A stretch of 64,000 bases of DNA, from NCBI RefSeq assembly GCF_001886495.1, contig NZ_CP018022.1, positions 496,001-560,000 on the forward strand, in the 5' to 3' direction. This document shows, piece after piece, positions 36,467 to 43,362 of this stretch. The position numbers and the translations under genes are program-made. Below the pieces are notes generated by a model. The model saw only the letters and a list, made by a program, of their open reading frames with translations, made no database searches and had not been told where the DNA came from. Position 1 is the stretch's first letter. The number at the start of each line of letters is the position of its first letter. The stretch comes from Spiroplasma sp. NBRC 100390. GTDB taxonomy: Bacteria; Bacillota_I; Bacilli_A; Mycoplasmatales; Mycoplasmataceae.

Positions 36467-36937
36467 ATGAATGAAGAAATTTTATTGACCAAAGAGGGAA
36501 TTAAGGATTTACAAGAAGAATTAGATAATTTAATTAATGTCGTTCGACCAGAAGTTATTGAAGAACTAAAAGAAGCCCGTGCACAAGGGGACTTATCAGA
36601 AAATGCTGACTATGATGCAGCACGAAATCGACAAGCTGAAGTTGAAGGACGAATTAAAGAGATTGAATCGTTATTAACAAAAGCAAAAGAAATTAAAGAA
36701 GTAAAATCAAAAACAGGAATTATTAAATTAGGAAGTAAAGTTACTTTTACTAATTTATTAATTAACAAAAATTTTGAAATTAAAATTGTAGGTGCTGTTG
36801 AAGCAAATCCATTTGAAAATACGATTTCAAATGAATCCCCGATTGCCAAAGCTATTATTGGTCAAAAAGCAGGCGATTTAGTTGAAATTAAAGGAATTCA
36901 AGCCCCATATAAAGTTAAAATTGTAACTGTGGAATAA
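36467..36937 (+). CDS. greA: Transcription elongation factor GreA
   Basis: GreA enters the secondary channel of RNA polymerase and triggers cleavage of backtracked transcripts. The 156-residue protein has the N-terminal coiled coil (LTKEGIKDLQEELDNL) with the tip acidic pair in LSENADYDAARNRQ, and the C-terminal domain with SPIAKAIIGQKAGD. Full length. GGAGAGGAA lies upstream of the ATG. Confidence 0.97.
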   Translation: MNEEILLTKEGIKDLQEELDNLINVVRPEVIEELKEARAQGDLSENADYDAARNRQAEVEGRIKEIESLLTKAKEIKEVKSKTGIIKLGSKVTFTNLLINKNFEIKIVGAVEANPFENTISNESPIAKAIIGQKAGDLVEIKGIQAPYKVKIVTVE

Positions 36938-36939
36938 TG

Positions 36940-36977
36940 GAAAGTAATTAAATAATTACTTTTTTTTTTTTTTTTTT
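36940..36977 (+). terminator. Terminator of greA with an 18-T tract
   Basis: AAAGTAATT pairs with AATTACTTT around a short loop and merges into an unusually long uninterrupted T run (about 36960-36977). Confidence 0.9.
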
Positions 36978-37027
36978 ACAAGGAATTTATTCAAAAAAAG
37001 GTTAAGTATTAACAAGGAGGAAACGAA

Positions 37028-37294
37028 ATGACAAAATTAACAATAAAACAAACGAAACAACTATCTGGAGGAAAAATTTCGGGTGCTTTTTTAACCGGCA
37101 TTGCTGCGATTATTAATGCTTGTAGTAATTCATTAACAAATTTAATTTCAACTGGGTTTTCAACTTATTTAGCAACACAACAAATGAGTCGTACTGAAGG
37201 TGGTTATAAAGCAACAAACGGGTCTCATCTAACTTGATCAGATAAACATAATAATTTAAATCATGCTAATTATGGACAAATCTTATTTGTCTAA
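37028..37294 (+). CDS. Double-glycine leader peptide 1 (bacteriocin-like candidate)
   Basis: An 88-residue product that begins with a 15-residue leader, MTKLTIKQTKQLSGG, ending in Gly-Gly like the leaders cut by C39 peptidases during ABC export. The predicted mature part of 73 residues starts with a hydrophobic, Gly/Ala-rich helix (KISGAFLTGIAAIINA) and ends with a polar region and YGQILFV. AACAAGGAGG precedes the ATG. The next gene, 6 bases downstream, encodes a second peptide with a leader of the same length and pattern. Pairing of this kind is typical of two-peptide class II bacteriocins or peptide signals. No C39 transporter is seen in the window, so export is unproven. Confidence 0.65.
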
Positions 37295-37300
37295 TTTTTT

Positions 37301-37525
37301 ATGAAACTATTAACGATAAAAGAACAAAAAGAAACTACAGGTGGAGCGGCTTGAATTATTGGAGCGTTAGTTTTAATTAGTTTTTTTGATATTGTTAAAA
37401 TTAGTTTAGATAGTTATCAGATTGCTCAACATTCACAACAACCAAATCAAAATGAAATAACGAAGAGAATTGAAGAAGCAGGAACAAGAAGTTTAAGACA
37501 GAAATGAGATATTCTTTATGTTTAA
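37301..37525 (+). CDS. Double-glycine leader peptide 2 (bacteriocin-like candidate)
   Basis: A 74-residue product with the leader MKLLTIKEQKETTGG, which matches the neighbour's leader in length (15), in the LTIKxxK core and in the terminal Gly-Gly. The predicted mature peptide begins with a hydrophobic helix (AAWIIGALVLISFFDIV), followed by a polar segment and WDILYV, an ending akin to YGQILFV of the first peptide. It reads two TGA codons as Trp. There is no Shine-Dalgarno before the ATG, so translation is probably coupled to the upstream gene. It is too short to be found without code 4. The role as bacteriocin or signal is inferred. Confidence 0.6.
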
Positions 37526-37783: not shown

Positions 37784-39322
37784 ATGATCGGTGTTATTTC
37801 AACGGCATATTTTACAATGAAAGATAAGCACAGTATCAAAACAGTAAAAAAATATTGATGAAAAAACTGTGTTATCCAACATGTTAAGTACCATGGAAAA
37901 ACTTTCATTATTGCAACAGTAGGTTATGGTAAAGCAAATGCTGCAATGGCTATTACTTACTTATTAGAAAAATATCCTGGCTTACAAACAATTTTAAACA
38001 TAGATTTAGCCTTGTCAACAAATGACAAACATGATACAGGAGATACAACAATTTCAACAAAATTTATTTATCGTGATGCAGACTTAACAGTTTTCAAAGA
38101 TATTAAATATGGACAAATTGTTAATGAACCTGAGTCATTCCAATTCGATGGTGAATTTGCTAAGGTTGTTAAAGACTTTAAATTAGGGTTGACTGAAGGA
38201 GTTACTGGAACAGCAGATATGTTGATTTATAACTCAAAACAATTTAAAGAAATGGTTGACAAATATGGTCACACAATTGATGTGATTGATACTGAAGCTG
38301 GTGCAATTGCACAAGTTGCTAAAAAATCAAGCATTAATTATATTGCTTTAAAAATTATTTACAATAACGCATTATCACCATGAGATAATGATCCAATTCA
38401 TAAATTTAAAATGTATGAAACAGTAAATACTTTAAAATACTTATTAAGAAGATTATTTAACTTATTAAGTTCAAATTACATTATTGATTTATCACAATCA
38501 TCACAAGATGATTTAGATTCAATTAATGAATTATTTGAAATCAAACATGACCAATGAATTAAATTATTTAAACCAAATACGCATAAAGTATTATCGGGAT
38601 TTGGACCTTCATTAATGCTAGTTGATAAACAAGAAAGAACGCCTGTTGCGTTAGATATCATTCAAGTAATGAGATCAAAAACGAAGGAAAACGAAGGACC
38701 AAGTAAAGTAATCTTAGGAGAAGATGAATGAAAAAATGCTCCGAAAAAATGATTACGTAAATTATTATTCTTAGAACAAGTTCGTGTTAATGATGATGAA
38801 TTATTATGAAATAAATCAGCAAAATATGATTTAAATAATGAAAAATTATATAAAATTGAAACAGTTGCTAATGAAATTGCAGCCGCAGTTGCTGAAAAAT
38901 GTCAAGATAAATCATCATATACATATAATGGTGCAACAGTACAAGAAAAATATTTATTAGTAAATGTTGATGCTAGAATTTCATTTTACATTACACATAA
39001 CCAATCACATGAATTTGTTGAAGATAAAAACTTTGGTGCACAATTAGTAAGCAATGAATTTATTAAGTATTTAAATGAAGCATTAAAAGATGTTGACTCA
39101 CCATATCAACAAATCGTTGTTTATATGACAATCCCAGCATTAGACTATCGTAAAATCCCAGTGTTTATTCCTTCAAATAAAGGAGCAAACAGAGGAGTTA
39201 AATTTGGAAACTTAAACCAAAAATTACAAAAAGATTATACAGTTGTGGATATTACTAGAAACGATTATGATCCAATTAAAGTTGGTTCATTCAAAGTTAC
39301 AATTCGTTTAAGAAGTGAATAA
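37784..39322 (+). CDS. fib: Fibril protein Fib (cytoskeletal ribbon)
   Basis: Fib polymerises into the flat membrane-attached ribbon that gives Spiroplasma cells their helical shape and takes part in kinking motility. The product is 512 residues, the published length for the S. citri protein, and the sequence (for example MIGVISTAYFTMKDKHSI, TVGYGKANAAMAITYLLEKY and VDITRNDYDPIKVGSFKV) agrees with the family as I know it. The N-terminal half is related to methylthioadenosine/SAH nucleosidases. AGGTGG lies upstream of the ATG. It has its own promoter and a strong terminator, fitting an abundant protein. Confidence 0.98.
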
Positions 39323-43212: not shown

Positions 43213-43362
43213 TTAACGTTTGTCTTTACAACACTCACATTTCTTATTAACACAATCTGTGCAAGAAATACAAATTAAACAAGAACGACATCCTACTTTT
43301 GGTTTACTACAGGTACGACATGACATACAATCATGGTTTTTTGTGGGACAACATACATCCAT
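43213..43362 (-). CDS. Cysteine-rich 49-residue protein
   Basis: A minus-strand gene from ATG 43360-43362 to TAA 43213-43215, with GAGGTGAAGAATA just upstream. The product has 13 Cys in 49 residues, mostly as CxxC pairs (CMSCRTC, CRSCLIC, CTDCVNKKCECC), with many Lys and Arg. The pattern suggests a metal-binding (zinc, copper or iron-sulfur) or redox protein; no known family is recognised. It lies between the phosphatase and ispG, an Fe-S enzyme, on the same strand as ispG and 47 bases after its stop. Confidence 0.75.
   Translation of the reverse strand: MDVCCPTKNHDCMSCRTCSKPKVGCRSCLICISCTDCVNKKCECCKDKR

What the first reader, a model, noticed from the sequence alone, without database searches (positions are those of the whole stretch)
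37028..37525. Tandem genes with matched 15-residue double-glycine leaders next to fib
Leaders MTKLTIKQTKQLSGG and MKLLTIKEQKETTGG have the same length and pattern, and both mature parts start with a hydrophobic Gly/Ala-rich helix and end alike (QILFV, DILYV). The genes are 6 bases apart, probably coupled. This is the signature of two-peptide class II bacteriocins or peptide signals, which I do not know to be described in wall-less spiroplasmas. A secreted peptide pair could act against competitors in the insect host or between cells.
Basis: partly seen in the sequence, partly recalled or inferred. Interest (0 to 1): 0.8.

Follow-up and report, generated by a model that had tools for sequence, protein, structure and literature searches.

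The report
Exporter substrates found in wall-less bacteria
Two small neighbouring genes in a spiroplasma encode peptides carrying an export tag; the matching export pump sits elsewhere in the genome, and relatives of the peptides occur in most mycoplasmas and spiroplasmas that carry the pump, which supplies the cargo that an earlier study of the minimal cell JCVI-syn3A reported it could not find.

Summary
Window 37028-37294 (pep1, 88 aa) and 37301-37525 (pep2, 74 aa) each begin with a canonical 15-residue double-glycine leader. A leader DNA pattern matches only these two genes in the whole 1.2-Mb genome. The same genome has one full-length C39-peptidase ABC exporter, unlinked. In the family (60 genomes), 49 of 50 genomes with a detected C39 gene have a pep1 relative, against 2 of 10 without. 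Where the exporter is lost or broken, peptides often decay: GG becomes GV with a pep2 stop (G002), or EV (G025). Relatives occur order-wide, mostly at one ancestral site (greA-rsmI-peptide-rplU-rpmA); the M. genitalium-sized genome has an MPN313-family member by mraZ. A 2019 eLife paper stated that no double-glycine candidate was known for this exporter in JCVI-syn3A or other mycoplasmas. I conclude that these are the exporter's cargo. The two-peptide bacteriocin reading is weak: no immunity gene, no GxxxG motif, deep conservation, and pep2 is clade-restricted and fast-evolving. What the exported peptide does is unresolved; my best guess is a conserved secreted or surface-inserted membrane peptide.

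The parts
36467..36937 (+). greA-like gene upstream (neighbour; conserved landmark of the locus)
   Evidence: ORF; same neighbour of the peptide gene in other genera
36944..36977 (+). weak stem (GTAATT/AATTAC) followed by 18 T: probable end of the greA transcript
   Evidence: read; below the threshold of the terminator scan
37014..37020 (+). ribosome-binding site AAGGAGG of pep1
   Evidence: sequence; purine-rich site also upstream of pep1 in relatives
37028..37072 (+). pep1 double-glycine leader, 15 residues
37073..37294 (+). pep1 mature part (73 residues) and stop
37301..37345 (+). pep2 double-glycine leader, 15 residues
37346..37525 (+). pep2 mature part (59 residues) and stop
37784..39322 (+). 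fib-like gene downstream (neighbour, not part of the system)
   Evidence: ORF; same neighbour in congeneric genomes

Best explanation
pep1 and pep2 are precursors of small exported peptides and are substrates of the genome's single C39-peptidase ABC exporter (PCAT type), encoded about 230 kb away. The 15-residue leader docks in the C39 domain, is cut after the double glycine, and the roughly 60-75-residue mature peptide (hydrophobic helix plus polar tail) is moved across the one membrane of the wall-less cell, perhaps helped by the 124-aa one-helix protein encoded beside the exporter. pep1 is the local form of an old, mostly single-copy gene family of the order Mycoplasmatales that sits between greA/rsmI and rplU/rpmA in most of the family. 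pep2 is a clade-specific second substrate; tandem pairs have also arisen in other lineages. Shown by sequence: leaders, exporter, synteny, co-occurrence and joint decay. Inferred: cleavage, export, and the role outside, which I think most likely is a membrane-inserting surface or secreted peptide with a general function in host or neighbour contact rather than a classical bacteriocin.
For: Leader pattern unique to these two genes in the genome. Full-length exporter aligning to PCAT1 and ComA. Family-wide co-occurrence: 49 of 50 C39-positive genomes have the peptide, 2 of 10 C39-negative. Decay with exporter loss: G002 (GG to GV, stop in the pep2 leader), G025 (exporter fragmented, GG to EV), G017 (shortened). 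G at -1 is kept in every inspected family peptide except G002 and G025 (G030, G032 and G056 read by eye). Conserved synteny. Order-wide profile matches. Purifying selection on pep1.
Against: No biochemical or expression data. G023 has the exporter but no detectable peptide. G009 (exporter broken) and G005 (one-base frameshift in the exporter) keep intact peptides. 13 C39-positive f3 genomes, 4 f7 genomes and 16 of 17 genomes of the remaining families show no peptide at E<=1e-3, so those exporters may have other or undetected cargo. The f3 link rests on leader plus helix and could be convergence. The function outside the cell is a guess.
Confidence: 0.85

Rival explanations
1. A two-peptide class IIb bacteriocin used against competing bacteria in the insect or plant host.
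For: Tandem GG-leader genes with hydrophobic helices and a C39 exporter; one relative has a sub-threshold match to the class IIb lactobin/cerein model (E 0.019, below its cut-off).
Against: No immunity gene beside the peptides or the exporter; no GxxxG in either mature part; pep1 relatives occur order-wide at a housekeeping locus, often without a pep2 partner; pep2 evolves fast and is clade-limited.
Confidence: 0.2
2. A secreted peptide pheromone sensed by other cells of the same species.
For: GG-leader/C39 export is the route of ComC-type signals; pep1 is single-copy and conserved.
Against: Mature parts of 59-73 residues are long for a pheromone; two-component receptors are scarce in mollicutes (own knowledge, not tested here); no receptor gene nearby.
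Confidence: 0.1
3. The mollicute C39 exporter does something else, such as lipoyl-peptide import and transamidation (proposed for JCVI-syn3A 0401), and the GG peptides are unrelated to it.
For: Proposed by Breuer et al. 2019 because no substrate was known.
Against: The premise of a missing substrate fails; co-occurrence and joint decay tie the peptides to the exporter.
Confidence: 0.05
4. Ordinary small membrane proteins with a chance GG; not exported.
For: Small, hydrophobic, no curated family above its cut-off.
Against: Leader pattern specificity and conservation of the leader across genera.
Confidence: 0.03

Closest known systems
C39-peptidase ABC exporters (PCAT1, ComA, LcnC class) with double-glycine leader substrates
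   Same: Exporter aligns nearly full length to PCAT1 4ry2 (E 2.6e-37) and ComA 8hf4; leader has L-12, T-11, Q/E-8, L/T-4, G-2, G-1
   Different: Substrate genes are not beside the exporter but at a conserved housekeeping locus, order-wide, with no immunity or regulatory genes
Class IIb two-peptide bacteriocins
   Same: Two adjacent GG-leader genes, hydrophobic helical mature parts
   Different: No immunity gene, no GxxxG motif, unequal conservation of the two peptides, core-like distribution of one of them
MPN313 family (NCBIfam NF045747; M. genitalium-sized genome G070, beside mraZ)
   Same: Similar length (87 positions), same leader register, helix after GG
   Different: pep1 scores far below the curated cut-off (16 of 100 bits); tail sequence differs; the family carries no function or leader annotation in the model description seen here
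JCVI-syn3A protein 0401 (PMC6609329)
   Same: Described there as homologous to the sublancin transporter with a C39 domain, the same protein class as the exporter here
   Different: Its substrate was reported missing and a lipoyl-import role was assigned; I could not identify the M. mycoides genome by name, so the link is by protein class

Membership tests
Double-glycine leader substrates of C39 exporters | Leader of about 15-30 residues with the L-12 / S,T-11 / E,Q-8 / hydrophobic-4 / G-2 G-1 pattern | tested here: met
   Sequence; position -4 is Leu in pep1 but Thr in pep2; -1 Gly conserved in relatives
Double-glycine leader substrates of C39 exporters | A C39-ABC exporter in the same genome | tested here: met
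   L005:2847-4913
Double-glycine leader substrates of C39 exporters | Cleavage after GG by the C39 domain | not testable with these tools
   Needs an in vitro assay
Class IIb two-peptide bacteriocin | Immunity gene in the same operon | tested here: not met
   greA upstream, fib downstream, no further plausible ORF between
Class IIb two-peptide bacteriocin | GxxxG helix-helix motif in the mature peptides | tested here: not met
   No GxxxG in either mature sequence
Class IIb two-peptide bacteriocin | Synergistic killing by equimolar peptides | not testable with these tools
   Needs synthetic peptides
MPN313 family (NF045747) | Score above the curated cut-off (100 bits) | tested here: not met
   16.2 bits over residues 1-48; at most a distant relative

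The most novel reading that the evidence does not exclude
Mycoplasmatales share an ancestral, vertically inherited peptide-secretion system: one C39 exporter with a small companion protein, and one or two GG-leader membrane peptides encoded at a housekeeping locus. It would be a conserved secreted product of mollicutes, down to M. genitalium, with a general function that is neither bacteriocin nor pheromone.
Probability: 0.55. Interest if true: 0.88.

Novelty: new variant of a known kind. Interest (0 to 1): 0.78.

Why it matters
A C39-domain protein was detected in 262 of 298 genomes of the order, yet its cargo was stated to be unknown, and for JCVI-syn3A that gap led to a speculative lipoyl-import role (PMC6609329). 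A concrete substrate family, with leader, locus and predicted cleavage site, makes the question directly testable in minimal-cell and mycoplasma models and would name a widely conserved secreted peptide of wall-less bacteria.

Tried and rejected
The weak second pep1 hit in the own genome (280 kb, E 0.18) appears to lie on the strand opposite a long phosphate-transporter-like ORF and was judged noise. The second C39-like gene in the genome (L002) has no ABC part and is not an exporter. Substrate genes beside the exporter in other genera: none seen. Pfam and NCBIfam give no named family above cut-off for the peptides. The named-genome scan found only Mesoplasma grammopterae, after one alignment was too divergent to scan. 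No peptide gene was recovered in G023 by a close-relative search, and the two 20-kb stretches fetched there held none of the expected landmarks. Promoter-like sites are no more frequent than in shuffles; no terminator call and no Rfam match. Single-sequence AlphaFold models show one helix each with low to moderate confidence, so no fold search was run.

Full report
OBSERVATION. With genetic code 4, window 37028-37294 and 37301-37525 encode 88- and 74-residue proteins that start with 15-residue double-glycine leaders, separated by 6 bases, between a greA-like gene (36467-36937) and a fib-like gene (37784-39322) (these gene names are my reading of the ORFs). A DNA pattern for the leader (L-12, T/S-11, I/L/V-10, Q/E/D-8, K-6, G-2, G-1) has exactly two matches in the 1,199,621-base genome, these two. 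All nine matches in 14 congeneric genomes lie at this locus, and the reversed pattern has none. The leaders are therefore not chance, although the pattern was written after seeing them.

THE EXPORTER. Pfam Peptidase_C39 finds one strong match in the genome at 762,987-763,397 (E 6e-27). It is the N-terminus of a 688-residue protein (L005:2847-4913) that aligns over residues 4-663 to the PCAT1 bacteriocin transporter (4ry2, E 2.6e-37) and to ComA (8hf4). The catalytic Cys, His and Asp and the ATPase motifs can be read in its sequence. It is followed by a 124-residue one-helix ORF; a similar ORF recurs beside the exporter in several genera. It has a weak full-length match to the uncharacterised MAG1140 family (E 0.053). 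It may be a reduced HlyD-type helper; that is inference.

CO-OCCURRENCE AND JOINT DECAY. In the 60 genomes of the family, 50 have a C39 match. Of these, 49 have a pep1 relative (profile A1); the exception is G023, where a close-relative search also failed. Of the 10 genomes without C39, only two have a peptide. G002 carries GG to GV in pep1 and a stop in the pep2 leader, while its near-identical relative G005 has GG in both. G017 has a shortened peptide. In addition G025, whose exporter is fragmented by stops, has GG to EV. G009, whose exporter is broken by insertion-like ORFs and frame breaks, still has both peptides, consistent with a recent break. G005's exporter has a one-base frameshift in a T run, which may be a sequencing error. 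Naive Fisher tests give p=1.5e-7 for presence and 3e-9 to 4e-8 for intactness. Genomes are related and exporter integrity was not checked in every one, so these numbers overstate independence, but G002, G017 and G025 belong to three different genera.

RANGE AND SYNTENY. In most other genera of the family the peptide gene sits downstream of greA and rsmI and upstream of rplU, prp and rpmA; in the citri-like clade it is between greA and fib. In f7 several genomes have it beside rplU-rpmA. With the f7 profile (A4) 109 of 113 C39-positive f7 genomes score at E<=1e-3, and with the f3 profile (A5) 69 of 82 C39-positive f3 genomes do (lists transcribed by hand and counted). In the 17 C39-positive genomes of other families only one does. 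The M. genitalium-sized genome G070 (580,076 bases) has the gene beside mraZ, as a member of NCBIfam MPN313, and its exporter at 491.5-493.5 kb, where PMC5745988 places MG_390. Profile-profile comparison joins f1 and f7 over 63 columns including the WSD/WD motif (probability 90%). The f3 link covers leader and helix only (95-96%), so convergence on one exporter cannot be excluded there. Tandem pairs also occur in G003, G119, G121, G133, G260 and G272. Seven C39-negative genomes of f3 with peptide or peptide-like hits are drafts 74-85% complete.

SELECTION AND ANATOMY. pep1 is under purifying selection (dN/dS 0.08-0.34 against G000). pep2's tail is not clearly constrained at larger distances (dN/dS near 1 against G005) although its leader and helix are kept. 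Mature pep1 is 73 residues (7.8 kDa, net charge +2), mature pep2 59 residues (6.8 kDa, net charge 0); neither has GxxxG. Single-sequence models give one helix in each.

MECHANISM. Shown by sequence: leaders, exporter, distribution, decay. Inferred: binding of the leader by the C39 domain, cleavage after GG, export through the ABC channel. Role outside: unknown. Core-like conservation, lack of an immunity gene and housekeeping location argue against a classical bacteriocin. Length, and the general scarcity of two-component receptors in mollicutes (my own knowledge), argue against a pheromone. I favour a membrane-inserting surface or secreted peptide for contact with host or neighbours, at about 0.5 confidence for that part.

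KNOWN OR NEW. Double-glycine/C39 systems are a known kind. New here are the substrates. Breuer et al. 2019 (PMC6609329) wrote that no double-glycine candidate was identified for protein 0401 of JCVI-syn3A and that other mycoplasmas likewise have C39 proteins without apparent candidates, citing Dirix 2004, and therefore proposed lipoyl import. Searches of the held open-access papers for double-glycine with spiroplasma or Mycoplasma genitalium returned that paper and one unrelated paper. Subscription papers were not searchable, so a prior report cannot be excluded.

Noticed in passing
window 36960-36977: Run of 18 T between greA and pep1; the run is 21 in G010 and 8 in G009. Tail of the greA terminator and possibly a phase-variable tract.
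   Followed up: partly
L005:2480-2854 and equivalents in L086, L087, L092, L093, L095, L096, L097, L127-L130: Small one-helix protein (112-144 aa) encoded directly downstream of the C39 exporter in several genera, absent in g7 and some other genomes; possible reduced HlyD-type helper.
   Followed up: partly
L002:814-1719: Second C39-like protein (301 aa, N-terminal membrane helix, no ABC part) in the same genome, beside a 254-aa ORF; compare the C39-fused extracellular proteins mentioned in PMC12633904.
   Followed up: no
window 43213-43362 (minus); compare L130:224-493 (minus): Very cysteine-rich small ORFs (49 aa in the window; 89 aa beside the exporter in G121).
   Followed up: no
L013:189-1400; L117 and L010 between greA and pep1: Insertions upstream of pep1 in relatives: a transposase-like ORF in G001 and coiled-coil repeat proteins in G002 and G005.
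   Followed up: no
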